DNA of 64,000 nt. Origin: Quercus robur. Its lineage: Eukaryota > Streptophyta > Magnoliopsida > Fagales > Fagaceae. Below, one piece after another: positions 1 to 60,957 of this stretch. The notes beneath the pieces were generated by a model. The model did not search any database. It had not been told where the DNA came from and worked only from the letters and a program-made list of their open reading frames with translations. Location of the stretch: assembly GCF_932294415.1 (NCBI RefSeq), contig NC_065538.1, positions 75,245,834 through 75,309,833 of the forward strand. The letters run 5' to 3'. A program made the translations under genes and the position numbers. The stretch's first letter is position 1. Each line of letters opens with the position of its first letter.

Positions 1-1388
1 GATCAGGAGAAAACTTCCTTCATTACCAGCCAAGGCTTGTTTTGCTACAAAGTAATGCCCTTCGGCTTGAAGAACGCAGGGGCAACTTATCAGAGGTTAG
101 TGAATCACATGTTTCGTCCACAGATAGGACGGAATGTAGAGGTTTATGTCGACGACATGCTTGTGAAGAGCATAGACGAGGGAAGCCATCTAGACGACCT
201 ACAGGAAACCTTTGAAACACTTCGGCGATATAAGATGAAGTTGAACCCAAGCAAGTGTGCATTCGGAGTGTCGTCGGGAAAGTTTCTGGGGTTCATGGTC
301 TCGCAAAGAGGAATTGAAGCAAATCCGGATAAGATCCAGGCTATATTGAACATGGAGCCACCGAAGAGTATTAAGGAAGTCCAATCCCTCACAGGACGAG
401 TTGCCGCTTTGAACAGGTTTGTTTCGAAAGCCACAGATAAGTGTTTACCTTTCTTTAAAGTCCTCAGGAAGGCATTTGAGTGGATGAACGAATGCTAAAG
501 GGCCTTCCAAGACCTAAAAGATTATCTTACAACTGCCCCATTATTAAGTCCATCCGTGCAAAGAGAAGAACTGTACCTATACTTAGCGGTGTCCCCACAT
601 GCCGTAAGTTCAGCTTTAATCAGAGAAGAAGGGAAAATACAAAAGCCGGTGTACTACACTAGCCGGGCACTTAGAGGAGCAGAGGGAAGATATCCGCTCA
701 TGGAGAAATTGGCTTTCGCACTAATAACGGCTTCTAGGAAGTTAAGACATTACTTCCAAGCTCATATCATTAATGTCATGACGGACCATCCGCTTAAGAA
801 GGCAATGAACAAGCTGGAAGCCGCAGGACAACTCGTTCAGTGGGCAGTTGAACTTAGTGAATTCGACATTCGGTACCAACCGAGAAATGCAATAAAGGCT
901 CAAGCTCTAGCAGATTTCATCGCAGAGTTCACTCCAAGTTACGAAGACTTAGGGGAAGGAGAGTACAACAACAAATGGGTCATCCATGTAGATGGATCGT
1001 CTACATTATACGCTGGAGGAATAGGAGTTGTCTTGCAGTCGCCAGAAGGGGACAAATTGAAATACAAGGCCCGTCTGCAATACCAGACTACTAACAATGA
1101 AGCGGAGTATGAAGCCCTTTTGAAAGGGTTGGAACTGGCCAAATCCGTAGAAGCAGACTCAATACTTGTCCTGGGAGACTCTCAATTGGTCATAGGCCAA
1201 GTCAATGGCACATGTGAAGCCAAGGAAGACAGAATGAAGAAATATTTAAAGAAGGTAGTACGCCTTGTGAAGAAATTCAAAAAAGCAGATTTTGTTCAAA
1301 TCCCAAGGGAAGAGAATGTGGAAGCAGATACTCTGGCGAAGGAAGCATCTGCGAATGAGGCGATGAACGAAATGGATGATGTACACTA
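1..1388 (+). pseudogene. pol, part A: reverse transcriptase, RNase H and archaeal-type RNase H (broken)
   Basis: Frame 1 is open from base 1, so the true start is outside the window. RT is shown by the YVDD active site at 145-156 and the upstream MPFGLKNA block near 55-78. An in-frame TAA at 496-498 interrupts the frame just after the RT core; the same frame resumes and runs on with the ordinary gypsy RNase H (about 570-900). A second RNase H (about 970-1350) follows, with the expected acidic residues in the blocks HVDGSS, NEAEYEAL, LGDSQLV and EADTLAKEAS, so all four D-E-D-D positions appear intact. The frame is cut at 1388 by the solo LTR and continues after 2616. The TAA could arise from one C-to-T change in a glutamine codon. 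Nothing here suggests a functional product. Confidence 0.88.
1384..1388. repeat. Left target-site duplication of the solo LTR (CACTA)
   Basis: CACTA at 1384-1388 is repeated at 2616-2620, exactly flanking a segment that starts TGTTGA and ends CTCACA. Five bases is the usual duplication size for plant LTR elements. One copy of CACTA with the insert taken out rejoins the pol reading frame without a shift. Confidence 0.85.
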
Positions 1389-2615
1389 TGTTGAGGTCTA
1401 AAAAAATCACAGTAAAATAAGCCCAAGAAAGAATAAGCTAAGCCCAAGAAAGAGTGAGTTAAGCCCAGAAGAAAAAAGACCAAGTCCAAAGGGATTATAC
1501 AAAAGGCCCTGAGGATCCCGAAGCCCAGAAAAGAAAAAGCAACCAAAGAAGAAAAAGAGAGAACATCACAGCAAAGTATAAGACGCAAGGATCCTCGGGC
1601 ACCATCAATGAGCGCGAAGAAAAAAAGAAGACCAGGACAGATTGATAGAAAGAAAACAAGAAAAAAACAAAAGGACGCAAGCGACCCTTCATGGCACAGA
1701 CAGAAAAGGCGTCGGGGAACCAAAACAAGGAAGAAGAATGTTAACAAAACGATTTCAAAAGAGCAGAACAGGATTCCGCCCAAATAGGAAAGAAACGGAG
1801 AAGTAAAAGACACCAGAAGTGAGGATGCCGAGAAGGGCATACCTCAGCACATCCCAAAGAGGATGGCCAACCAGAAGCTTTCGAAGGAATCAGAACCAAG
1901 AGAAGGAAAGAATGAGAGAAAACGGAAAAGGGGACTTACCGAGATGATGAGGACAGAACATACTCTGTTTGCAAAAGACCAAAACAGGGGAACCAACGGT
2001 TCCCCAAGACGCCCAGAAAACTCCACTATAAAAGGAGAGGATGGGTTGTGAAGAAGGGCAGCGAGAAAAAAAGAAAGGAACAATAGAAAGAAGAGATTCA
2101 CTAGAAAAAATCATCAGAAAGTCCAGGCAGAAAGAATACTAAGGGAAAAACAAATACTGCTTCCCGATATCCTGTAAAAGCAACTATGGCACATACTCGG
2201 ATCCAACGAGAATCAAACTTCGCAAGTTTTGAAGGCTGAAATAGCCATTCAAGGCTGCAATTTTTGAGCTCGATTGGACCTTGTATCACGTCCTAGTAAG
2301 CTTGCTGTAATCAAACAGATAATGCTTTAATGAAATACTGTTTTCATAATTCCCAGGATCCCCACAGTACTTTTTTATCGTCTTGCTAATCCTGCTTTTC
2401 TTTTCTTTCTGAGCTTACGTTGTTAATTTCTGGCACTCCTCGATATCCTTGTTTGTCATTTTTTTTTTTGTCAGGAGTATTTCTCTGCATTCACTTGATT
2501 CTTAAACAGCCATTTAGCTGCGGTGAGTCAAGGCCCAGTCCACCAAATCCTTTCCTTTTTTCATTCAGGCTCGGGATCCTTGAGCCTGAGTATCCCGAAA
2601 AAAGACACTCTCACA
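1389..2615 (+). mobile_element. Solo LTR (1227 bp) inserted in pol between RNase H and integrase
   Basis: The segment begins TGT and ends ACA, is flanked by the 5-bp duplication CACTA, and contains no pol sequence, PBS or second LTR, so it is a single LTR left after recombination between two LTRs. A TATA box (TATAAAAG) at 2027-2034 sets the orientation as plus and divides a purine-rich U3 of about 640 bp from R/U5. Its plus strand is strongly A/G-rich between about 1400 and 2110, which produces long meaningless open frames on the other strand. It does not resemble the 585-bp LTR at 7662-8246, so it comes from a different family and arrived later than the host element. Confidence 0.85.
2027..2034 (+). 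promoter_or_regulatory. TATA box of the solo LTR
   Basis: TATAAAAG in a short GC-richer context, about 640 bp into the LTR, as expected for the U3/R boundary promoter of an LTR. Activity is not shown. Confidence 0.5.
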
Positions 2616-3908
2616 CACTACATGCCAAGTATAGACCTTCCAGAATTGATGCAGATAGGGGGAGAAGGAAATTGAATGACCCCAATACTATCATACTTAA
2701 AGGATGGAAGTCTTCCAGAAGAGAAGGACGAAGCTAGGAAGCTCAGGGTCAAGTCAGCCAGGTATGTGCTTATGGACGAAGTGTTGTATAAGAGAGGTTT
2801 TTCCCAGCCTCTCCTAAGGTGTTTAGCTTCGGACGAGGCAAATTACATGTTGAGGGAGGTTCACGAAGGAGCATGCGGGAACCATTCGGGAGCCAGATCA
2901 CTCGTCCATAAAGTCATCCGTAGCGGATTCTATTGGCCAACCATCCAAGCTGATGCTAAAGCATATGTCAAAGTATGTGATCAATGTCAACGCTTTGGCA
3001 ACATTCCCAGACAGCCAGCAGAATATCTCACGCCAATGATGGCCCCTTGGCCTTTCGCACAATGGGGATTAGATATTTTGGGGCCCTTTCCGACGGGAAC
3101 TCGGCAAATGAAGTTTCTGGTGGTGGGAATAGATTACTTCACAAAATGGGTGGAAGCTAAACCCTTAGCCAAAATTACGCAGCAGAATGTCAAGAACTTC
3201 GTCTGGAAGAACATTGTATGCAGATTCGGAGTACCTAGAGTACTAGTGTCTGACAATGGACAACAGTTTGACAACACACCCTTCAGGGAATTTTGTGAAC
3301 AACTTGGAATGAAGAACCATTACTCCTCACCCTCCCACCCACAGGCCAATGGCCAGGCAGAAGTAGCGAACCGATCCTTGCTGAAGATCATCAAGACTCG
3401 GCTCGAAGGGGCAAAGGGGATATGGCCGGATGAATTACCAGGTGTTTTATGGGCTTATAGAACGACAGCGAGAACTCCAACAGGAGAAACTCCTTTTAAG
3501 CTAGCCTATGGAAGCGAGGCAGTTATACCAGCAGAAGTACACATGACGAGCCATAGGGTGAGGAAGTATCAAACTGAAGAAAACGAGGCACAGCTCCGTC
3601 TTAACCTTGACCTTATGGACGAGGTCAGGATGGATGCAGAACAAAGGACAACAAGGTACAAAAATCTCATGACAAGACAATATGATGCTATGGTGAAGCC
3701 TAGACGTTTCAACATCGGAGATCTCGTCTTGAAGAGGGTTACCCTGGCAACAAGAAACCCGGCCTACGGGAAACTTGGCCCAAATTGGGAAGGACCTTAT
3801 AGGATTATCAACTGCAAAAGGCAAGGATCCTGCTATTTGGAAGCTTTGGATGGGCGGAGGTTGGGACACCCTTGGAATGTTGAGCACCTCAGGAAGTACC
3901 ATCAATAA
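2616..3908 (+). pseudogene. pol, part B: integrase (broken near its start)
   Basis: The frame continues from the duplicated CACTA, meets a TGA at 2673-2675, then is open to the natural stop at 3906-3908. The zinc-binding H-H-C-C module (HEGACGNH then CDQC) lies near 2858-2990. The catalytic core shows the three acidic blocks GLDILGP, VSDNGQ and QAEVAN, that is an apparent D-D-E triad. The C-terminal block LGPNWEGPYR and the final HLRKYHQ are typical of gypsy integrases. The TGA sits where relatives keep a tryptophan, consistent with a single G-to-A change. The core domain itself looks intact, but without an upstream fusion to RT it would not be made normally. Confidence 0.88.
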
Positions 3909-5085
3909 GTGTTGACTCTTCACCAGTGTCCTTGGACGAGATGTATGGACGAGAAGAAGTGTTTACTACTGTCAAGTGTTTTTAAGTATTTTAATAATCC
4001 CCTAGAAAGTGCATTAGTGTTTTCACTCTTGTGCTATTCATGGATGAGTTGGTTTGTATTTTTAATTCAATAAGGCACTAGCTAATGAGCATGTGCCATG
4101 CCTGTGGACGAATGTTTACATAAGTTTGGATTTTCAAATATATATATATATATATATATATATTGTTTTCAAATATATTATTGGAATCCTTATATGTTCA
4201 TTCAGATTGATCCATAAAAAGAAAGTAAGCATGGACGAATAAAATCCTTGGACGCAAGGATATATCGTCCATAAGTCTTTCTCCAGAGGAAAAATGAAAA
4301 GGTACATCCGTCCAGAACATGGGACGAGGTGAAACCTAACCTGAAAAGTAAACTGAGGTTCATCCATCCAGAACATAGGACTAGATGAAACCCAAGCTAA
4401 AAATAAAGCTAAGGTCCATCCGTCCAGAACATAGGACGAGATGAAACCAAAGCTAAAAATAAAGCGAAGGTTCATCCGTCCAGAACATAGGACGAGATGA
4501 TAACTAAGTTAAGGGCATACTCGTCTAGACCTCAAGACTAGATGAATTCCCAGAAGTGTTCGTTCGAGACATGGACGAGCAAAGACTTCAAAACTAGCTT
4601 AACAATCCATTACATTGGACGAGAAATCGCTAAAAAGTCTAATCGTCAAGGACGACAAAAATGATCGTCCATAATTATGGAATGACGAAAAATCTAACCA
4701 AAAGGAATCAATTTACTTTATCTTGGTGATGTAATAAAATTCACCCCCATGCCCAAGACGAGGTGAACTGAATTCCTAGATGGACGAACCACACTTCTGA
4801 TATGAAAATAAAAAATTCATACATAAAGCTGAAAACGTATATATTCAAACACAATGGAAGTAAAAATAGAAGTATTCATTTCTTTCATGAAATTCAAAGG
4901 GTGGACGACTAACGTCCAAAAACCCCTTTAGTTGTGAATGTATATAAAACTCGTCCATAATCCTGGACGAGATGATTGTACTTGCATGAGCTTTAAAATA
5001 AAAATAAAAATAAAAAAAGTAAAAAGCCCAAAACAACGGGCACTTCCATGAAAAGACAAATGAAAGTAAATTTTCAAAAAATAGA
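3909..5085. repeat. Retrotransposon spacer with dense GGACGA/TCGTCC motif and 56-bp tandem repeat
   Basis: No reading frame of any weight. I count at least 16 exact GGACGA or TCGTCC hexamers between 3934 and 4970 (for example 3934, 3947, 4106, 4233, 4265, 4322, 4434, 4490, 4573, 4617, 4650, 4665, 4782, 4903, 4951 and 4965). An (AT)n run lies at 4138-4162. The 56-bp repeat at 4301-4520 is listed separately. The stretch separates the pol stop codon from the end of the antisense gene. Confidence 0.7.
4301..4520 (+). repeat. 56-bp tandem repeat, nearly four copies
   Basis: Copies begin at 4301, 4357, 4413 and 4469, exactly 56 bp apart. Each starts with GGT(A/T/C)CATCC(G/A)TCCAGAACAT and carries GGACGAG or a variant about 25 bp in. 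The fourth copy fades after about 45 bp. A weaker, diverged echo continues to about 4580. Confidence 0.8.
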
Positions 5086-7307
5086 TCACTTGGGGTCGTC
5101 CTGAGTAACTTCAGTGTTAGCATCGTCCATGATATTGACGTCCTCGGAACTCGTCTGCAACATGGAACTCTCTGTAGCAAGAGGAAGCTTGAAGGAGTTG
5201 AAGTCCAAATCAGGATATGCGTCTTTGGCATCAGCACGGAAGTCTTCATAACCAGCTGCATAATGACTATCTAGACGATTCTTATACTCGTCAGACTTCT
5301 TAAAAGCAGCAATTGCTTCTTCACGTGCCTTCTTCAAGGACGAGGTAAGCTCTGCAACTTGTCCTTCTAGATGGACGATGCGGGTATCCTTCTCTAAGTT
5401 GTCAGCTTTGAGCTCCTCAACATCGTTCTTCAGCTTCGTCTCGCTTCCCAGCAGACGATTTAAATCCTCGGTCAACCTAATGACCTCCCCCTTCTTGGAT
5501 AAGACCTCATGGCTTAGCTCCTTAGCCTTATCCTTGGCTGTCTTGGACTCTGTAGCAAGCTCCTTGGCCTGGCAAGTCGCTGTATAAAACTTTGACATGG
5601 CCTGCATTTGGACGAAAAGGAGTTAGACATTTCATTCAAAATTAAATGTTTACACACAAGGACAAGGAAGAAACTTACCTTGAAAAGGTCATGGATGCCA
5701 GAACGCTCAAACTCCTTCACTGACATGTTGTAACATTCGTTAACTTCATGATCAGTGACGATCCCTTTGAACGTCCTCCATGCATAACCCTCGTCCAGAA
5801 CCAAATTAGAGGGACGATCAGAGGACTCAGACGGGCTAGGCTTGTGAGAAGTTTTGGGAGCAGGGGGAGGATCAGATTGGGCAGGATGAACTATTTGGAC
5901 GGGCTCCACGTCCACAGGTTCGTCCAAGTTCACTGTTGGTGGTACGAACTTAGGAACCTTGGGAAGGGAAGTCTTACTTGGCTTTTGCTTCTTGTGGCCA
6001 CGACGACTGGGAAGGTCGTCCAAGTCCACATTGCTTGAGATTGGCTTGGATTTCCTCTTCCCAGCCTGGACGGAAGCCACTTTGGGAGTTGGGGCAGCAA
6101 CATCCTCGTCCCCGCTAGCCACTGTTTTCTCTTTGTTTTCCCTCATCGTACTTATCCCTGTGACGAGAAAAATTACTCAGAAAAATTAAAAAATAAAAAG
6201 AAAGGAAACTGAAATAATAGAATGTAATGGACGACACTTACTTCGACGAGTGACCTCCTCGTGACTTAGGTTCTCAGCAGTAGGAACTGGACCAAGTCCC
6301 CAAGTTGCTAGACGACTGAGGGTGACTAAGTCGTGGAAAGTCCTTCCTGAAAAGGTGCGAACCACTTCTATACGATCCAAGGAGAACTTATCCAAGTATG
6401 GACGAACAACAGCTGTATCACCAATAGAAAGGGTTAGACGAGTGACAGATAACATTTTTTTTTTTTTAAAAAAACAAACAGAATAAAATAGAAAGAAAAA
6501 CATACCCTCAGGACGAAGGCGACCTAGAGGGCTGGTAAAAGGTGGGAAGAGGGGATCACCCACATCAGCTGGGTCCCCAGCCCAATTTCCAGAAATAATA
6601 AAATATTCTTTTTTCCAAAATCGGTCAGACGAACTACGACCCTTTATTAAACTGTAATATGAACCCCTAAACGAGAACTGGTAAAAGCCAGCAGATTTTT
6701 TGATCTCTGAGGGCTTATAACAGTAAAGGAACTCGTCCACTGTAATTGGACGGTCCCCTTCCAATGCCTCACGCCATAATACTTGCATGGCTACAATCAT
6801 CCTCCAACCATTGGGATTGAGCTGGTTAGGCCCAATACCCAACCTTTGGAAGAGTTCTCTGCAGAAAGAGTTTAGGGGAAACCTAAGACCAGCTAAAAGA
6901 TAAGAAGCATATACCCCTAAGCCAGAGGAAGGGGTACAACACCACTCTCCAACCTTGGGTAGACGAGGATTAAGCTCTTTAGGGATTTGATATCTATCTA
7001 CAAGAGTTTTTAACTTAGCACCGTCTAAGGTGGATGCTACCTCTGGGACACAACTATAGATTACATCTTCTTCGTCCTCTTCCTCGTCTTGAGGAGGACT
7101 AGATGGCTGTCTGGACGAACTAGCCTTGGATCCAGAAGCTGCCCTACGTCGTTGTTCCTGAAATTCCTCTAAAGGAATGCCAGGAACCCCAGACGAGTAA
7201 TGCTCGTCTGAGGAATCACTACAGGACGAACTACCTATACTACCCTCACTCTCAGAGCCGTCCAGGTAGTCGTCTATCTCTCTCTCTAAACTAGAAGATG
7301 AAGACAT
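5086..7307 (-). CDS. Antisense retrotransposon-borne gene, Transposase_28-like domain plus coiled coil (4 exons)
   Basis: Four exons on the minus strand join in frame: 7307-6506, 6412-6242, 6157-5679 and 5601-5086, all with GT/AG junctions (phases 1, 1, 0), giving 655 residues with no stop. Residues 1-80 are Ser- and acid-rich. Residues about 95-245 (blocks GLGVYASYLLAGLRFPL and NGWRMIVAMQVLW) match my memory of the 'putative gypsy type transposon' family (Transposase_28, PF04195). Residues 355-390 carry two basic clusters (KRKSK, RRGHKKQK), possible nuclear localisation signals. Residues 485-600 form a long Lys/Glu/Leu heptad-like coiled coil. Function is unknown. It lies inside the element, opposite to pol, between the integrase stop and the 3' LTR, and is intact although pol is dead. 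The Pfam name does not make it a transposase; no catalytic motif is visible. Confidence 0.75.
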
Positions 7308-7467
7308 GTTTGGAATGTAGAAGACTTAAAATGAGAGCCTAAAAAAAAAAAAAGGAAGAAAAGAGGAAATACCTGATGAAACTAGGACAAGAGCTAGACG
7401 AGAATCTTGGACGAATTGGCAGAAGAGAGAATGAGGAAAAAAGTGAGGGGCATGAAAGAGAATGTAC

Positions 7468-7475
7468 TATTTATA
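7468..7475 (-). promoter_or_regulatory. TATA box for the antisense gene
   Basis: On the minus strand the sequence reads TATAAATA (7475 to 7468), preceded by GGGGCC, 160 bp upstream of the antisense ATG at 7307. This is a good plant TATA context and the only strong one found upstream of the gene. Confidence 0.55.
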
Positions 7476-7523
7476 GGCCCCGGCAACAGGGTCAACGAAA
7501 CGACGTTCGCCACTCAGAGATAG

Positions 7524-7593
7524 ACACGTGGCGATTCTTTTGGGAAACGAGATCGACAGGACTGGCCAACCAACAGTTTCGCGACACGTGGCG
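7524..7593. promoter_or_regulatory. Two G-box/ABRE-type motifs upstream of the antisense gene
   Basis: ACACGTGGCG occurs twice, with CACGTG at 7525-7530 and at 7585-7590, exactly 60 bp apart. Each includes ACGTGGC, the known core of abscisic-acid response elements bound by bZIP factors. They lie 50-120 bp upstream of the antisense TATA box and outside the LTR, so they are better placed to serve the antisense gene than pol. Regulation by ABA is inference. Confidence 0.5.
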
Positions 7594-7661
7594 TACGAAA
7601 AAGTGAAATTTGGCCAAAATCACAACGATGTCCTGGACGACCCTTTGAACAAAGGGGCAAC

Positions 7662-8246
7662 TGATAGAGAAGCAGAAAATAATCCATCTCCAGCTCGTCC
7701 AAAGGTTTCGTCTAGAGCCTGCAACGCAGGTTGATCCAAGAGTCAACCTAGAAGAAGGAGAAACGTCCACTAAACAATAGCGCCACTCTATAAGTTAAGT
7801 CTCCCATGGATGATATGATCGTCCATGAAGGTCGTCCATGAGCAGCCATCAGATATCCTTGGACGACCAAACAGTCCTACACCGGATGGACGATAGCGCA
7901 ACACTTGAATAAGTTAACTCCCACTGGCGGTTATAGTTTTTATATCCGTTGAGGCAGTTAACCCCGAGTGCGTTGGCTTCCGCAAATCCTGGGGAGGTTA
8001 TTGGACAAATAACCGCCCCAGGTTCCCTATATAAGGGACCGGTCTGAACCCGACAGAGGTAAGTTTTTTCTCTCAGACACATTTCCAAAACACTTGGAAC
8101 TTATTCCTCTACGAGTCTAACTTCTCCATCGGAGGGGGTTCGACCGGTCTCCTCTTTGATCACATTTTCTTCCTTGCAGGCCATCAACCGTTTGAACAGC
8201 CCACCGAAGCCAAGCCATTCTACCTTACTGATTTGGAGCATTATCA
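7662..8246 (+). repeat. 3' LTR of the Tat-type element (585 bp)
   Basis: Starts TGATAG directly after a purine-rich tract (AAAGGGGCAAC, 7651-7661) that fits a polypurine tract, and ends TTATCA; TGATA/TATCA are inverted at the ends. A TATA box TATATAAG is at 8028-8035. GGACGA/TCGTCC hexamers continue inside it (near 7696, 7819, 7831, 7860 and 7886). The inner inverted repeat GGTTATT/AATAACC lies at 7996-8014. Without the 5' LTR in view the right boundary is a prediction. Confidence 0.7.
8028..8035 (+). promoter_or_regulatory. TATA box of the 3' LTR
   Basis: TATATAAG followed by GGACC, about 365 bp into the LTR, in the usual place for the U3/R promoter. Transcription from this copy would run out into the flanking DNA toward 8247 and the 82-residue gene. 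Confidence 0.5.
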
Positions 8247-9778: not shown

Positions 9779-9809
9779 AAACTAGGTTTTCCTAAGTACA
9801 CAAGAAAAT

Positions 9810-10058
9810 ATGGCTACAGAAGCACCAAGCTGGGCAGATCAATGGGGTGCTGGAGGAATAGGTGCCATGGGGGAAGAAGACAACAGTAATACCCAAAAAG
9901 AAAACGGCAATAACAAGAAGGGCAATGCAAAAGGTGGGCTTGACAAAGCAAAAGCAACTGCAATGGTGGGAGCACAAAAGATTAAGAGCGGGGCATCTGC
10001 TGGCATCAAATGGGTCAAGAATCAATGCCAGAAAAAAAGCACTTCCTCTTCTAAATGA
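9810..10058 (+). CDS. Small conserved plant protein of unknown function (82 aa)
   Basis: Single coding exon with ATG at 9810 in AAAATATGGC and TGA at 10056-10058. The N-terminus carries WADQWGAGGIG, the middle is a charged Asn/Lys/Gly-rich linker, and the C-terminus carries GLDKAKATAMVGAQKIKSG followed by a KWVKNQC block ending in a basic, Ser-rich tail. I recognise this layout as a short plant-specific family seen across eudicots without an assigned role. No signal peptide or membrane span is visible; the C-terminal half could form a basic amphipathic helix. It is preceded by a probable 5'-UTR intron. An AATAAAATAA polyadenylation-like signal lies near 10256. Its next neighbour, ATG8, points the other way. 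Confidence 0.7.
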   Translation: MATEAPSWADQWGAGGIGAMGEEDNSNTQKENGNNKKGNAKGGLDKAKATAMVGAQKIKSGASAGIKWVKNQCQKKSTSSSK

Positions 10059-10287
10059 ACACGCAGATTGTTTAATTTCCATTTTATTAAAAAGCAGAAT
10101 CAATGGAATGTTTGCAGTTTGTACTACTGTTGAATTTGAATGCAGACCATGGTTTTATGGAGTCAGATGTACAGGCCACTAAGATTTTATTATATTTTCC
10201 TTTGTACTAGTCAGAAACACATAGTCACATACATTTGCAACAAGTAGTTTAAAAACAATAAAATAACATAAAAGGTTTTAAACCCAA

Positions 10288-10362
10288 GAACAAGCTGTCT
10301 ATTGTGAGGACAAAGGTATCTCACGGAACAAGCTGTCTATCGCGAGGACAAGGTATCTCATG
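10288..10362 (+). repeat. 38-bp tandem repeat, two copies
   Basis: GAACAAGCTGTCTAT begins at 10288 and again at 10326; the second unit is 37 bp. Differences are few. It lies just past the probable poly(A) site of the 82-residue gene. Confidence 0.7.
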
Positions 10363-11100
10363 GAACAGCTCCATGAAACTATCTTCTCCCACATGCTGGG
10401 AGACAGTGACTTCATAAAACCATTTTCATAAGATAATTTTCTATCTATTGCACTAGGATGAAGTAGATACTACAAAATTCTCGTGACATCCTTCAATTGT
10501 AGGCCATGCCCACTTCAGTGACAAACACTATTCTAAATGATCTTAAATTTCCATTGCTCTTATAAATAAAATAAGTAGAAACAACTTTTTTTCTGAACAA
10601 TCACGAGCTAATAATGCCTGTACTACCAATGCATATTTGAAATTGCATGTAGGGTAGCTATGTATCTTATGACACTAAGATACTACTTGGTAAAAATTTT
10701 GCTTTCCTCGTGAGGACCCACAGGTTTTAGCACTCTTAAAGACCATTGACCCACATAATTTGTGAGTAATCATGTGCACAATATTAACAATAATTGATAA
10801 AGGAAAAAAAAAATATCATTCTAGAATTTCTCTAGATTTTGAGTGAGAAAAAGGGAAGGCAATACTAATTGGGACTATAGTATCCAATTCCAACCTTCTC
10901 CTGACGGAGGAAGAAGCATCAATGACATCTATAAAACAGTTGGAAAATCACTTAGTACTTGATTCCATAGATTCAAATTCCATTGTTAAGACACCATATA
11001 AGTTCAAACTGCTTCCAACAAAAACTAATCCAGATTTAACTACAATTTTTTGATAAGCAAGTAAGGCATTGACTTGAGAGAGACTTCTGAGAATTTACAC
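10363..11100. other. Intergenic stretch between convergent genes
   Basis: Holds the 3' flanks of the 82-residue gene (plus) and of ATG8 (minus). No gene or recognised repeat was seen. Confidence 0.5.
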
Positions 11101-11123
11101 CATCCAAATTTTATATACACAAA

Positions 11124-12813
<1,690 letters not shown>

Positions 12814-38301: not shown

Positions 38302-38910
38302 TTACTCAAGGAAACCAGTTTTTGTCAAGATAGCATTCCTGACTTTGCTAAGATCCCTTCCTTTCAGTGTCCTTCCAATCCCTTCACAAACAGAGAAAGA
38401 CGAAATCTGACTCCTTGCAAGCTTCTTAGCAATCCATTCATGTGGAGGAACCATATCACCATCATCCTCATCATCATCATCACCACCATAATTACCTACA
38501 GCATGATGATCTCCATCATCATAAGCAACAGTTCCATTATATCTGTTACCATCCTCAGCATTACCCACCAGTGATCCAACCCTTGAGCCCATTTTGGCAC
38601 TTTTACCATAAATCTTAGACCAATCAGGAATGTTCACAGGAGCTGAGGATTGCTGAACAACCACCTTGGTTTCATGGGTTGTTGCAGTAATATTGCTATT
38701 AGCCCTCGGAATCATTCTTGGGGTAGTAGAGAAGCGCCATGCAGAAGAAGAACCAGAAGAGTAGTCTTTGGATTTCCTCATTTTCTTAGGACTTAAATCC
38801 TCACTTTCCTTAACAAAACCCCACACATCTTCTTCTTCAAAATCATCATCTCTCATTGATCTCCCACCAAGACCATTGCTTTTGCTCATGGTACCATTCC
38901 AATCTCCCAT
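38302..38910 (-). CDS. Senescence regulator S40 family protein (DUF584)
   Basis: Intronless, ATG at 38910, stop ending at 38302, 202 residues. The start MGDWNG is preferred over an in-frame Met 35 codons upstream because the extra stretch looks like untranslated leader and relatives begin near here. The family blocks are present in order: WGFVKE, then [15 protein letters not shown] (about residues 58-72), then [11 protein letters not shown], an acidic run DDDDEDDGD, and the conserved C-terminus [20 protein letters not shown] with [21 protein letters not shown]40 proteins are plant-specific, nuclear in the cases studied, and several rise during leaf senescence, dark and ABA treatment; molecular activity is unknown. 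The ORF is intact. An ATG-repeat-like acidic tract encoded by CATCATCAT triplets (near 38460-38520) is a likely site of length variation. Confidence 0.92.
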
Positions 38911-38999
38911 TGAAATAGCTCTATGATTTCCAAAGAAGTTTAAATAGGAGAGAAAGAGAGAAATGAATGAAGTTAGAGTTATTGAACCACTTCTTTCAA

Positions 39000-40370
39000 T
39001 ATAAATAGAAAGCAAACAATTTGAATTTTTTTTTAAGTTATGGTTTTTAATGAGCTAAATCTGATTTTGTTCCTTGGGAATAGGAAAGGAGAAAGGTGAA
39101 AGAGAATAATATCAGGAATCTACCTTGCCTTTGTTTCAATATCCTCCAAAAGAACAAGGGCTTTTCAAAGATTTCTCAAATTAGTACACTGTACATAACC
39201 CCAAAAAACCAACCCAAGACAAAGCAAGAGAAGCTATGGAAACCCTTTTACCTTGCCAGAATACCTCCAAAGAAATCACAGATTTCAAGGGCCTTAGGCT
39301 CAGAATGGTACCCTGCAACCACAGAGAGCAAAAAGACAACAAAAATTATGTACTACATCAATTGATACATTAACTTTCATACCTATCATAAAACCTGAAA
39401 TGGAAAGGAAATAGGCAAATGGAAAATGATGGGCTTCGATAAGAATCTCTCACTTCCCAAACAACTCACCTAGATTCACTGTGAAGTGGGTTTATTACAA
39501 AAATCCAAAAGCCCACAGAATAGAGAATCCAGAACAAGAAGAAGAAGAAGAAAAAAGATGGATATTGTGGCATTGAGCAAACCCAGAAACCAAGTCCAAT
39601 CCAAGCATATTTCTTTTACTACCACCTAGAGAAACAGTCGGTGGTGTGAAAGACTTCTTTATATGGGGTTAATACATATACTGATTGATATACATGCTCT
39701 CATTTGTTTTGTTTTTTTTTTCCTTTTTGTTTTTCCTAAGATGAACAGTGAAAAAATATATATTATTTTTAATAAAGCTCAAATAAAAAGGCTGGCTTTT
39801 GATTGGGAAAGGTGGAGAAGAACGATTGGTCAGACCCAACCCTTCACTGATTCCCGCAAACCTTATCTACAACTCACTACAACTCAGCTCAATCGGCGTT
39901 ATATCAGTGAAAAATAAAAGGCTCAGCGAGTGAAAAGGCATAAAAGCTTTCTCTATCTCTCATATTAGTGTGTGCGTGTGAAAGTGTGAAGCAACTTTTT
40001 TAAGGATGCCTAGGAGAGGGTGCTAGCTAAGCTTAAGGAGTAAAAGCACTTGTTGGTTGGTTGATATTGCATTGAGAAATGTGGTGTGAGTGAGAGAGAG
40101 GGTGAGGAGGGTTTAACTGTGACTGAAACTTTTCTTTTTCTTTTCTGTGTAACTCTTACCACTTCATTCTAATTCAATGCTTCCTGGGTTTTGGGGATTA
40201 TTGCAGAAAGATGAGTAAAGGACCTAAAGATAGTACTAGTAATGAAGAAAAAGAGAAAAACTTGCAGAAAAATTTAATAATGAAAAAAAAAAAATAGTGT
40301 AGAGAGAGAGAGAGAGAGAGAGAGTGAGAGAGAAGGAGAGGAGAGTGTGGGGGCAAATATAGGTCAGGGT
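39000..40370 (-). promoter_or_regulatory. Upstream region of the S40 gene
   Basis: Candidate minus-strand TATA sequences are TATTTATA near 39000 and CATATAAAGAAG near 39653-39664. The latter would imply a long leader. A pure GA run lies at 40302-40323. No other gene was seen; which TATA is used cannot be settled from sequence. Confidence 0.3.
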
Positions 40371-42622: not shown

Positions 42623-42647
42623 TGGTAGTATTGTTTAGCATATTATA
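41296..42647. other. Intergenic stretch, no gene seen
   Basis: AT-rich with poly(A) at 42524-42547 and (AT)n at 42592-42619. A run of GGTTTTTGA-type repeats with inverted copies lies at 41330-41520. No gene recognised. Confidence 0.4.
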
Positions 42648-42946
42648 TAACAAGAACTCTTTCTTACACAAAGTCTCCTATGAGATTTCTTTTAATATAG
42701 TAAGGTACTTCTAATCACTTGGCCTTCTTCAATATCCTATAGCTAAAAAAATGAAAATCCACAAGCTCAAGTTTCTTCAGTCATCACAAAAGGGAATAAC
42801 AAGAACTCTTTCTTACACAAAGTCTCCTATGAGATTTCTTTTAATATAGTAAGGTACTTCTAACCACTTGGCCTTTTTCAATATCCTATAGCTAAAAAAA
42901 TGAAAATCCACAAGCTCAAGTTTCTTCAGTCATCACAAAAGGGAAT
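42648..42946. repeat. 149-bp direct tandem duplication, two copies
   Basis: TAACAAGAACTCTTTCTTAC begins at 42648 and again at 42797. The two 149-bp copies differ at only about two positions that I can see (TAATCAC/TAACCAC and CTTCTTC/CTTTTTC). The high identity implies a recent event. Confidence 0.88.
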
Positions 42947-57200: not shown

Positions 57201-60200
57201 CAATAAATTGACAATAAAAGGAGAGCACAGGACAGATTGTTACAAATCAAGAGAACCCAAAAGAATTAGAGAGTGAACCCTTTAAGCCTCCATATTAAAG
57301 AGAAAAGTTGATAACTAAACATGAAATAACTCACCAGTGCTTTTGACATGAGTACCATTATCCGAAGGCAACATTTTCTGAGGCGGCAATGGACCATTGC
57401 GGTGGGTCCAACGGTTAAATGAACCCCTGAACCAAACTTCAGGTTTTCCATTGAGAACTGTGTTGGCAGGATTATAGAAAACCTTCACTGTGCTTCCTGC
57501 ATGAACATCAAGAGGTTCTGTGTAGACTATGTGCTTTTGAGATAGCAAAAACCTTTTCAAAGTTCTTTCCTTTGTTTCAGCCTTCATACGTGCTGTTCTT
57601 TCAGCCTACGAAAGGAGAAGCACGGAGAAATGGAAATTAGTAGTGAAAAGAAGAGAGTGATAAAATGCTAAATCAATAGCTTTGAAAGGATCAAAACTAC
57701 AATTAGTTTTTATTATTCATCCCCAGCATCCATCTTGAACATCTTAAGATTAGCCCAGGAAACTCACACTTATCAGAAGGACCACAATAACTGAAATAGA
57801 CACACTAGACCAGAACTAAAGTTGGTCCTCCCTATCCTCTACATGTGAGCCACCATAACCATTACCCCACACAATATTTATGTACAATATTCTTAGATGC
57901 ACTTCCTCTGAGAATAAAAAAACGATGACCAAGTGTGCTTTAATCAATATAAATTAGCCATATCTTGAATGGAAGATTTTTTCTAAACTGACCTTGGCAC
58001 GTATAGCCTCCTCTCTTAACCTCCTCTCCTCCTGGAGTTTCCGATAAATCCGGTGTTCTTCCTCAACCCAATAAAGTTCTTCAGGTATGCCTTTTGGGAC
58101 AATTGCATGGAAATCCTGGCGGTGGTTGTTATCATACGCAATGGCTTTCTGTGGTGGTCCATCAGCAAAAACCCAATCTAAGACAAATGCTCGATCAGGT
58201 ACAACAACTGCAGAAAATAAAGTTGATTATTATTATTTGTCTTATAACATGCAACACTGACAGTATAAGAGAAATTCCACCTAATACTGATCCATGAAAA
58301 AATAGCAAGCAAGAATTAAAAAAAAAAAAAAACCTCCCTTAATTTTACAGTGTTCTTTTGGTGATCCACCTGTCAGTGTCCATCACTCCATCCAGAATTA
58401 CTAAAACAGATGGGAACAAGATATCAAGCTCTACTTGTACAGGACAAAGTTTGAGGCTTTTTTTTAATAAAAAAAATGGAAAAAAGAAAGAAAAGAAAAA
58501 ACGCCATCTCCATTTTGCATAATTCTCAAACAAAAATGAGTGAAGATTTCAGGTCATCAGAATCACCTTGCCTATGGTTAAAAGGGCTCATAACAACCCA
58601 ACAAAACTAAAAACCACAAGCAGCCAACATTTCAAGAGACATATAAAAGGTTATTGTCATTACCTAACCATAAACTGGTTTGGGTCAAAATAGACACTCC
58701 TGGCCCTTCAAGATATGCTAGTTTGACCCACATTAAAATTAAAATGCATGGACATGGCAAAAGGGTGGGAAGTTTGAGAAGTAACTCATTATCTGAGTTT
58801 GCTAAAAAATGTATACTCCCTTGTGTGAAACACTCAACCTTTAAATGTAATATATTCATACACATAAAAGACAAACAAATATGTATATTTGTGTGTGTAT
58901 AACTACCCATCTACTCTCTCTCTCCCTCTCACTGTTCATGACAGAGATCGGAAATTTTTAAGAGATGCATGTCAAGTAACAACGTTTGGAGTCACACCAC
59001 TCACTTTCAGCAACACCACATTTGGATTGAAAATTTAGCACATATCATATATCAGGCAACAGCCAACAGATTGCATGGTACTTGGCATGACTAATGAATG
59101 CCAACTGACACCATCTTGCATATGCACCTTATATTCTGTCACTCCAGCCAGATAATCTAAACTTGAAAGTCTAAGAAAGCATCATAAAACATTAAAGATA
59201 AGAAAGAAAATATATCTATTTATACATACCATCAGCATACCACCAGTCACCATCCTTTTCTTCAGAACTGACAAGCATTTCAACAATGGACAATCCATCC
59301 TTCCAATTATTATGGCCCCCATGAATCCATAGTTCCTTCGCATGAGCAAGGGGGCCAGAGTTTTTATTATAATATAACCTGACTGAGTCTTCACCTTTAA
59401 ACTCACCAGGCTCTATATACCAAACATGATCGACAGACCTTACAGCATTTTTTGTCAACCGTTTCAAAGCTTCTCGCCTCCTTTGAGTCTCCTCCCTTGC
59501 CTGTGCTCTATCAGCTTCACTTGCTGCTTTCTCTGCATCTATTCGCCGTTGTTCCTCTGCTTGTCTTTCCCTTTCAGCTTGCTCCTTAGCAAGTTTCTCA
59601 AGTTCTTTACGTTTCTCTTCAAGCAAGAAATCCTCAAATTCAAACGCATCCATTCCACCTTCCACAGTCACGCAGAAATTCTTTTCATCATTATTGTCAT
59701 AGACATTTTGCCCATTGAAAAAGACAAAGTCCATCTTGTAGGCTTCCTTGGGAACATGAACTAGGCAAGACCACCAATCCCCTTTTAGATGTGTTTTTTT
59801 CAACCTTACTGTAAATGATTTCCATCTCCAGTCATTAAAGGCTCCCATTAACAGAACATCTGGCTCATTATTTAAAGTGGAGAGACCCCTACTGAGGAAA
59901 ACTTCTATATCTTGATCAGGTTTCACTACTTGAGGAAAAACAAACATCTTGCTCCCTATCGAGAAGTTCTCCTCAGCAAGCATCTCAATTTTCTGCTTAC
60001 GCAAGTTCGCTTCCATCTCCAACTTTAATTTTAGAGAAGCTTCTTCTCTAATCTTTTCATCAGTTTCAGTACTTTTATCTCTTGTGGTGTCATCACGCTC
60101 TATGATATCCAAGTGTCTTCCTTCTGAAACCATTTTATCAGGAACATTCTCAATATCACTCTTGGAAGCTGTTTCTATCTTCTGTAATTCTGCTATATCC

Positions 60201-60957
60201 TCATTGACCCTAGCAATGGTTCCATTTTTCACCACTTGAATTTTCTGAGCAATAGCTGATGATTTATTTGCTGATGATAATTCATTGGCTTCCTCAGTTT
60301 CAGAAATGATTTCTTTCTCAGATTTATCCTCTCGAGAATGTTCAACCACCCACTCTTCCTCAGTATCAACTTTTGTTTCAACGGTTTTCCTGTTGGGTGA
60401 CACATGCTCACTAGATGTTGGAGCAATTGGCAACTCTTTCTCTTCATTATTTATTTCATCCCTCTTTTGGGTGCTTGTTCCCACCGGTGTTTTTGGCGAC
60501 AATCCCTTTGAAGCAGGGCCTTTAGGCCTTGCATTTGACATTTTCTTTGATCTCCTCCTTGGAGAATCTACCAATATGCAGAACCAGAATTTAATAGAAT
60601 AAAGGATCAAAATTCAACTTTGAACCAGAACAGAACAACGGCAACTAACCTGAACTAGCAATGATCCGATATGAAACTCCACCTCCCTGGCAGTCTTTTC
60701 CCCATGAAGAAGACTGAAACCAAAATGTATGACTTCAATACATTCAGAATAAGAATGAAGCAGTATGAAAACAACCTCAGTTCAATACTTGGAATTATTT
60801 TTGAAAACAAAAAACCTACCATTAACACTCAATCAATTGTAATTTAATGGGGCAAATTACACCAATCCCCCTTGAGGTTTATCAAAATTACACTCCCCTC
60901 CTTGAGATTTCTATAAATGCAACAAAGAAGTTCATGCCCTCCCACACCATTACTTCC

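What the first reader, a model, noticed from the sequence alone, without database searches (positions are those of the whole stretch)
5086..7307. Intact spliced antisense gene inside a dead Tat-type retrotransposon
Seen: four minus-strand exons with GT/AG borders join without a stop over 655 codons, while pol on the other strand has two stops and a 1.2-kb insertion. Known: some plant LTR elements carry extra, sometimes antisense ORFs between pol and the 3' LTR, and Transposase_28 (PF04195) is a plant family named from gypsy association with no known activity. Inference: the gene may have stayed under selection longer than pol, for example as a trans-acting factor or a captured host gene. It is the best candidate here for an under-described system.
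Basis: partly seen in the sequence, partly recalled or inferred. Interest (0 to 1): 0.75.

Follow-up and report, generated by a model that had tools for sequence, protein, structure and literature searches.

The report
Spliced antisense gene in plant retrotransposon
A plant jumping element carries, on its opposite strand, a four-exon gene that natural selection has kept coding, set in DNA studded with one short repeated sequence that the gene's protein might recognise.

Summary
On the minus strand, four exons (7307-6506, 6412-6242, 6157-5679, 5601-5086) encode 655 aa; exon 1 carries Transposase_28 (PF04195). The host is an LTR retrotransposon of the Tat/Retand kind (3' LTR 7662-8246). Its pol has two stops and a 1,227-bp insertion.

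Splice dinucleotides are kept in 254 of 258 cases (44 copies). Indels are about 35 times denser in introns than in exons. dN/dS is about 0.15, near the integrase's 0.11. A family 31% identical in the domain has its three introns in the same phases.

Two parts of the inference fail: nothing shows selection on this particular copy, and the gene does not outlast pol. Antisense Transposase_28 ORFs are already a published hallmark of Retand elements.

What looks new is the conserved exon structure, a conserved antisense promoter (TATA, usually with paired G-boxes), and dense tiling of the element by GGACGA/TCGTCC, not seen in the flanks sampled. This resembles VANDAL/VANC anti-silencing systems and suggests a self-recognising DNA-binding protein (odds about 0.3). 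No RNA or binding data were available.

The parts
6506..7307 (-). aORF exon 1 (267 codons + 1 nt): acidic Ser-rich N-terminus, then Transposase_28 region
   Evidence: (PF04195 at residues 133-174)
6413..6505 (-). intron 1 (93 nt, phase 1), GTATGT..ATACAG
   Evidence: length 79-101 nt in 44 other copies
6242..6412 (-). aORF exon 2 (171 nt)
   Evidence: homologue in families L066 and L067
6158..6241 (-). intron 2 (84 nt, phase 1), GTAAGT..TCACAG
   Evidence: length 62-103 nt in the 43 copies that hold it
5679..6157 (-). aORF exon 3 (479 nt), basic clusters that look like a nuclear localisation signal (motif recalled)
5602..5678 (-). intron 3 (77 nt, phase 0), GTAAGT..ATGCAG
   Evidence: length 77-91 nt in the 42 copies that hold it
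5086..5601 (-). aORF exon 4, coiled-coil-like, stop TGA at 5088-5086; lowest dN/dS of the four exons (about 0.09-0.11)
7468..7475 (-). TATAAATA box of the antisense gene, 168 nt upstream of the ATG
   Evidence: 48 of 49 sequences (window plus 48 copies)
7525..7532 (-). G-box/ABRE-like GCCACGTG, proximal (label recalled)
7585..7592 (-). G-box/ABRE-like GCCACGTG, distal (60 nt from the proximal one)
4299..4512 (+). tandem array, 56-nt unit, 3.8 copies; 2.8-5.7 units in 38 other copies, one GGACGA per unit in 37 of them
3909..8246 (.). region tiled by GGACGA/TCGTCC (16 in the spacer 3909-5085, 15 in the aORF exons, 2 in 7308-7661, 5 in the LTR)
7662..8246 (+). 3' LTR (585 nt), TG..CA, followed by target duplication ATTTG; K2P 0.0245 to its 5' LTR (L057)
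1..1383 (+). pol: RNase H and additional RNase H, preceded by what reads as the end of reverse transcriptase (1-495, by eye); stop at 496-498
1389..2615 (.). 1,227-nt insertion, TG..CA, target duplication CACTA on both sides; reads as a solo LTR of another element (not confirmed)
   Evidence: genome searches 88 and 93 unanswered
2616..3908 (+). pol: integrase (H2C2 zinc binding, rve core); stop at 2673-2675

Best explanation
The feature is the accessory gene of a Retand-type LTR retrotransposon. It is read antisense to gag-pol from its own promoter, just inside the 3' LTR, spliced from four exons, and translated into a 655-aa protein with an acidic N-terminus, a Transposase_28 domain, basic clusters and a coiled-coil-like end. 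Shown here by comparison: the exon structure, the coding constraint and the conservation of promoter words. Inferred: because the genomic RNA is the sense strand, antisense introns are not recognised in it and pass through each round of reverse transcription unspliced, which explains how introns persist in a retroelement. Also inferred, with odds of about 0.3: the product is a nuclear, self-associating protein acting in trans on its family by binding the GGACGA/TCGTCC words that tile the element, in the manner of VANC proteins on VANDAL elements. This copy is a fairly recent, already decaying insertion whose gene has not yet been hit; it need not be functional. The confidence given is for the spliced, constrained accessory gene, not for the binding step.
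For: Splice sites 254 of 258. Indel runs 26 in 1,968 nt of exon and 117 in 254 nt of intron. dN/dS 0.148 (codon bootstrap 0.108-0.199) for the gene and 0.104 (0.074-0.159) for integrase on six disjoint pairs; exons 2-4, which were not used to pick the copies, give 0.145 between subfamilies. The same three introns in a 56% identical family and in L066, 31% identical in the domain. No contiguous frame longer than 465 aa at any of the 145 matches listed. TATAAATA in 48 of 49; paired G-boxes in 38 of 41, and in 4 of 8 more distant copies, with 3 of 8 keeping one and 1 none. For the word: 0 of 1,000 synonymous permutations reach the observed 15 in the CDS; second-ranked hexamer in the non-coding parts of the window element; 0 in 4,727 nt beyond the LTR in 38 copies.
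Against: No transcript was seen: splicing, promoter use and translation are comparative inference. Forty copies were the top of a list ranked by exon 1 similarity and eight were picked from rows without a stop in exon 1, so exon 1 intactness is biased upward. Pairs share ancestry, and the two subfamilies look mosaic. Eight of 26 exon indel runs are not multiples of three, and many of the 15-nt runs are one shared event. One diverged copy (L053) does not keep the word (4 of 18, against 31 of 110 controls), L066 has fewer, RNase H has none, and L049 exon 4 shows no excess. DNA binding of Transposase_28 is only a published prediction. My structure models are poor (mean pLDDT 39 and 50).
Confidence: 0.85

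Rival explanations
1. Antisense RNA is the product: the reverse transcript makes double-stranded RNA with the genomic RNA and tunes silencing; the protein is incidental.
For: Proposed in PMC7264820 as a possible role, alone or together with a protein; a conserved antisense TATA box is present.
Against: Replacement changes are held well below the silent rate in every exon (ratio 0.09-0.36 across exons in the subfamily comparisons), and the signal is specific to the coding frame. An RNA role would not need that, nor the scarcity of indels in exons.
Confidence: 0.08
2. A captured host gene kept by selection at this locus (exaptation).
For: The copy's frame is intact while its pol is broken.
Against: The gene sits between integrase and 3' LTR in 38 of the 40 copies fetched with flanks (the other two, L029 and L045, are truncated). 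Private changes of this copy are 6 replacement to 3 silent, p=0.43 against neutrality. LTR divergence is only 0.0245.
Confidence: 0.03
3. The four 'exons' are separate short antisense ORFs, as an ORF finder would list them, and not one spliced gene.
For: The published survey lists antisense ORFs one by one: 104 antisense ORFs in 63 clusters, some with Transposase_28 and some with Smc-like domains.
Against: Phase-compatible GT/AG borders kept across families, introns free to change length, and exons in one register.
Confidence: 0.05
4. The GGACGA tiling is a by-product of tandem duplication and gene conversion, or a site for a host factor, unrelated to the antisense protein.
For: Part of it lies in a 56-nt tandem array; the word contains CpG and could be shaped by a mutational bias; L053 and L066 fit poorly.
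Against: It stays second of 771 words without array and LTR, is enriched in coding sequence beyond synonymous permutation, and is kept better than CpG-matched words in L054-56 (43 of 58 against 170 of 349) and subfamily B.
Confidence: 0.45

Closest known systems
Retand-lineage antisense TRP28 ORFs (PMC11963269, parts 1-3 of 5 read; PMC7264820, parts 1-2 of 3 read)
   Different: The 2025 survey used ORF Finder on contiguous ORFs; in its held text 'intron' and 'splicing' occur 0 times and 'spliced' only in reference titles. Here one four-exon gene, its promoter words and its selection are described, plus the word tiling.
Grande gene23 (maize), as described in PMC7264820; original paper not read
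   Same: Antisense accessory gene between pol and 3' LTR, own upstream promoter, nuclear protein.
   Different: Whether gene23 has introns could not be checked; no sequence comparison made here.
VANC anti-silencing proteins of VANDAL elements (PMC5735166, passages read)
   Same: Works-like only: a TE-encoded protein and a short word packed at high density, partly in tandem arrays whose unit number varies between copies.
   Different: VANDAL is a DNA transposon (recalled). No binding or demethylation has been shown here, and the word is also abundant in coding exons, whereas VANC21 sites are mainly non-coding.
HTLV-1 HBZ (named as an antisense retroviral gene in PMC11963269; its splicing is recalled)
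   Same: Antisense accessory gene near the 3' LTR of a reverse-transcribing element.
   Different: No homology implied; PMC7264820 places the HTLV antisense promoter inside the 3' LTR.
Ogre introns (PMC6317226, passages read)
   Same: Intron in a Tat-lineage element.
   [quoted passage not shown] here the introns are antisense.

Membership tests
Retand lineage (Ty3/gypsy, Tat) | Additional RNase H between RNase H and integrase, shared with Ogre (PMC6317226) | tested here: met
   RT_RNaseH at residues 23-122, RVT_3 at 165-283 of 499-1398, then integrase 2676-3905
Retand lineage (Ty3/gypsy, Tat) | Antisense ORF with Transposase_28 between pol and 3' LTR (PMC11963269) | tested here: met
Retand lineage (Ty3/gypsy, Tat) | Position in the reverse transcriptase tree | not tested
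   no named reference elements were held; the window starts inside RT
Retand lineage (Ty3/gypsy, Tat) | Paired LTRs with 5-bp target duplication | tested here: met
   ATTTG on both sides, LTR pair K2P 0.0245
Pfam PF04195 Transposase_28 | Score above the curated cut-off | tested here: met
   30.6 bits against 26.2; L066 43.6 and L067 43.4, but L049 24.9, below the cut-off
VANC-type anti-silencing system | Short word at high density, specific to the element | tested here: inconclusive
   8-15 per kb in spacer, gene, promoter and LTR, 4 per kb in integrase, 0 in 4,727 nt beyond the LTR in 38 copies; 3 in the other 55.7 kb of the window, the number expected by chance. Specificity genome-wide could not be tested: that search did not complete
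VANC-type anti-silencing system | Encoded protein binds the word | not testable with these tools
   needs EMSA or DAP-seq
VANC-type anti-silencing system | Protein causes loss of methylation of its own family | not testable with these tools
   no methylome data
VANC-type anti-silencing system | Sequence homology of the protein to VANC | not tested
   no VANC sequence fetched; Pfam shows only Transposase_28 and weak coiled-coil-type hits
Spliced gene | Splice junctions seen in RNA | not testable with these tools
   no RNA data held; comparative evidence only

The most novel reading that the evidence does not exclude
Retand retrotransposons carry a two-part self-recognition system: a spliced antisense gene encoding a Transposase_28/coiled-coil DNA-binding protein, and GGACGA/TCGTCC target words packed through the element including its own coding exons. 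The protein coats the copies of its family and relieves silencing, a retrotransposon counterpart of VANC/VANDAL. This would give PF04195 a first function.
Probability: 0.3. Interest if true: 0.85.

Novelty: new variant of a known kind. Interest (0 to 1): 0.6.

Why it matters
Antisense Transposase_28 ORFs are a hallmark of a widespread plant retrotransposon lineage and have no known function. If the gene is one spliced unit, surveys by contiguous ORF have been splitting it: the separate 'TRP28' and 'Smc-like' antisense ORFs may be exons of one gene. The antisense arrangement also gives a simple reason why introns can live in an element copied through RNA. The word that tiles the element offers a direct, cheap binding test for a function that has stayed open.

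Tried and rejected
Openness of the exon chain as proof: rejected, since 308 of 4,950 combinations are open. Relatives of exon 1 in viral and prokaryote contig collections: none confirmed. Solved structures by sequence: none up to E 10. AlphaFold of exon 1 (13 sequences) and of the domain (10 sequences): mean pLDDT 39 and 50, not used; the order of helices followed by a hairpin in the second suggests a winged helix but is too weak to claim. Locus-level selection on this copy: tested, not seen. A very short 5'-leader intron (CAG|GTATTT..TTTAG|G) was considered and set aside as too short (about 20-40 nt by eye). Identity of the 1.2-kb insertion by genome search and a genome-wide scan for clusters of the word: unanswered.

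Rows dropped: of 145 matches, the window and 48 others were read. L029 and L045 (truncated) were left out of dN/dS, indel and private-change counts, and L013 also of integrase. L053-L056 were left out of the indel and private-change counts. L049-L052 were analysed apart because their DNA does not align over the gene. In one search the script failed to place acceptor 3 of L051; 23 of 24 border sites in L049-L052 are shown. In one search the alignment ran three bases past the LTR and counted one difference too many; one search gives the LTR alone.

Full report
What is there. The window starts inside the pol gene of an LTR retrotransposon on the plus strand. Pfam finds RNase H, an additional RNase H (RVT_3) and integrase in that order. 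The 3' LTR is 7662-8246 and its partner lies outside the window (G000:C5:75242626-75243220). The pair differs by 14 transitions and one 10-nt indel in 585 aligned sites (K2P 0.0245), with ATTTG on both outer sides. At a rice rate of 1.3e-8 per site and year (recalled) that is about one million years, more at slower rates. The order RNase H, additional RNase H, integrase is that given for Ogre and Retand elements in PMC6317226 (passages read). The antisense Transposase_28 ORF points to Retand (PMC11963269, parts 1-3 of 5 read). A tree position was not tested.

Pol is broken in this copy: a stop at 496-498, one at 2673-2675 in the integrase frame, the second absent from all 37 copies in which that place could be read (3 of 40 could not), and a 1,227-nt insertion with TG..CA ends and CACTA on both sides. 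The insertion looks like a solo LTR of another family, but the genome searches to confirm it did not complete.

The gene. The best chain gives 802 + 171 + 479 + 516 nt, 655 aa, with donors GTATGT, GTAAGT, GTAAGT and acceptors ending ATACAG, TCACAG, ATGCAG. Transposase_28 reaches 30.6 bits against a cut-off of 26.2. Exon 3 has basic clusters; exon 4 gives only weak coiled-coil-type hits.

Copies. A search of the same genome gave 145 exon 1 matches; 144 of 4,593 candidates were scored. I read the 40 next best with flanks and 8 lower ones picked from rows without a stop in exon 1, so the sample is biased towards intact exon 1. In 44 alignable copies the six splice dinucleotides are kept in 254 of 258 cases; the exceptions are acceptor 1 and donor 2 of L056, acceptor 2 of L033 and acceptor 3 of L055. 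Counting the window, 28 of 45 sequences have start, all splice sites, no stop, no frameshift and the final stop. Introns are 79-101, 62-103 and 77-91 nt long in the copies that hold them. Summed over 38 copies, exons show 26 indel runs in 1,968 nt and introns 117 in 254 nt; 18 of the 26 and 20 of the 117 are multiples of three, and 146 of 152 exon lengths differ from the window's by zero or a multiple of three. Many of the exon runs are one shared 15-nt difference. The longest contiguous frame at any of the 145 matches is 465 aa, so a 655-aa product would need splicing.

Selection. By Nei-Gojobori counting, dN/dS of the CDS is 0.165 within subfamily A, 0.154 within B and 0.158 between them; integrase gives 0.125, 0.108, 0.108. 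On six disjoint A-B pairs the gene gives 0.148 (codon bootstrap 0.108-0.199) and integrase 0.104 (0.074-0.159). The other frames give 1.2-2.5, except one antiparallel frame (0.27) whose third positions coincide. Exons 2-4, which played no part in choosing the copies, give 0.145. Three pairs with more distant copies (L054-L056) give 0.124. This is selection on the replicating family. For this copy alone the private changes are 6 replacement and 3 silent in the gene, 8 and 6 in integrase; neither departs from neutrality (p 0.43 and 0.095). Over all copies private changes are 133 replacement, 123 silent and 5 stops in the gene (39 sequences), 98, 62 and 6 in integrase (38 sequences). So there is no sign that the gene was kept longer than pol.

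Depth. A family 56% identical in exon 1 (L049-L052) has the same three introns; 23 of 24 border sites are shown, and the script failed to place the last (acceptor 3 of L051). Two further families, 31 and 32% identical in the domain region, have recognisable homologues of exon 1 (E 6e-30 and 8e-34) and exon 2 (4e-6 and 1e-4); exon 3 is found in L066 (6e-6) and not in L067; exon 4 is found in L067 (4e-5) and weakly in L066 (0.005). L066 introns, placed by eye and checked by script, are 88, 108 and 85 nt in phases 1, 1, 0, as in the window; its copy has one internal stop. For L067 the borders were only read by eye. The exon structure therefore appears older than these families' divergence. That L066 and L067 also lie antisense to pol was not checked.

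Promoter. TATAAATA lies 144-186 nt upstream of the start in 48 of 49 sequences, L010 being the exception. Two GCCACGTG words 60 nt apart lie upstream of it in 38 of 41 subfamily A/B sequences; three have one. In the eight more distant copies four keep two CACGTG cores, three keep one and one (L053) keeps none. This fits the report that Grande gene23 has its own promoter (PMC7264820, parts 1-2 of 3 read).

The word. GGACGA/TCGTCC occurs 16 times in the 1,177-nt spacer between integrase and the gene, where random sequence of the same dinucleotide content gives 0.34 on average (at most 2 in any of 100 draws); 15 times in the exons; 5 times in the LTR; and 3 times in the remaining 55.7 kb of the window, the chance number. 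Without the tandem array and the LTR it still ranks second of 771 hexamers, after the overlapping CGTCCA. In the CDS none of 1,000 synonymous permutations reaches 15 (mean 3.9). L049 exon 1 (0 of 1,000), L067 exon 1 (1), L066 exon 1 (8) and integrase (9) are also rarely reached; the RNase H part has no word, and L049 exon 4 shows no excess. In 38 copies the density is 14.9 per kb in the spacer (539 in one orientation, 143 in the other), 8.5 in the gene, 8.2 in the promoter region, 10.6 in the LTR, 4.1 in integrase, and zero in 4,727 nt beyond the LTR. The array holds 2.8-5.7 units, with one word per unit in 37 of 38 copies. The word is kept better than CpG-matched hexamers in subfamily B (458 of 479 against 2,649 of 3,117) and in L054-56 (43 of 58 against 170 of 349), but not in L053 (4 of 18 against 31 of 110); in subfamily A the difference is small (262 of 280 against 1,635 of 1,816). 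In non-coding parts it ranks sixth of 659 in L049 and fourteenth of 470 in L067, and does not stand out in L066.

How it most likely works. Shown by comparison: a constrained, antisense coding gene with conserved intron borders and promoter words. Inferred: sense genomic RNA carries the introns reversed, so they survive reverse transcription. Inferred, with perhaps one chance in three: the protein binds the word and marks its own family, as VANC21 does with YAGTATTAY, which is packed at high density, in one orientation and in changing tandem arrays in VANDAL21 (PMC5735166, passages). A difference is that here the word is also rich in exons.

Novelty. PMC11963269 reports antisense TRP28 ORFs in 97% of clusters and predicts DNA binding; 'intron' and 'splicing' do not occur in its held text. 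PMC7264820 calls for looking at antisense and spliced transcripts. Searches listed no held paper that, by its listing or the passages I read, describes introns in this gene or this word. The original papers on Grande gene23, RIRE2, Retand and the extra-ORF survey of 2011 were not read and may do so.

Limits. One genome, no RNA, copies picked from the top of an exon 1 ranking or for stop-free exon 1, related pairs, poor structure models, fold search unavailable, genome-wide word scan unanswered.

Noticed in passing
window 7308-7375 and upstream leaders of L049-L056: A conserved CAG|GTATT ... TTAG|G pair in the 5' leader looks like a tiny intron (about 20-40 nt) in the leaders printed; too short for a usual plant intron and unexplained.
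   Followed up: partly
window 5602-5678: Intron 3 differs less between copies (0.02-0.04 within and between subfamilies) than silent sites of the neighbouring exons (0.07-0.14) and has few indels, unlike introns 1 and 2.
   Followed up: no
window 2616-8246, copies L009-L048: Subfamilies A and B differ in exons 1-2, intron 1 and often the LTR but hardly in exons 3-4 and integrase, as if recombined by template switching.
   Followed up: no
window 1389-2615: TG..CA insertion of 1,227 nt with CACTA target duplication and a TATA-like stretch inside; probably a solo LTR of an unrelated family.
   Followed up: partly
window 9800-11450: The retrotransposon ends about 1.5 kb from what read like two small host genes, one resembling ATG8 on the minus strand (read by eye, no search).
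   Followed up: no
window 38302-39054 and 59216-60613, minus strand: Long frames resembling a DUF584/S40 senescence regulator and a starch synthase III part (labels recalled, no search; frames).
   Followed up: no
window 42647-42946: Head-to-tail duplication of 151 nt, 98.7% identical.
   Followed up: no
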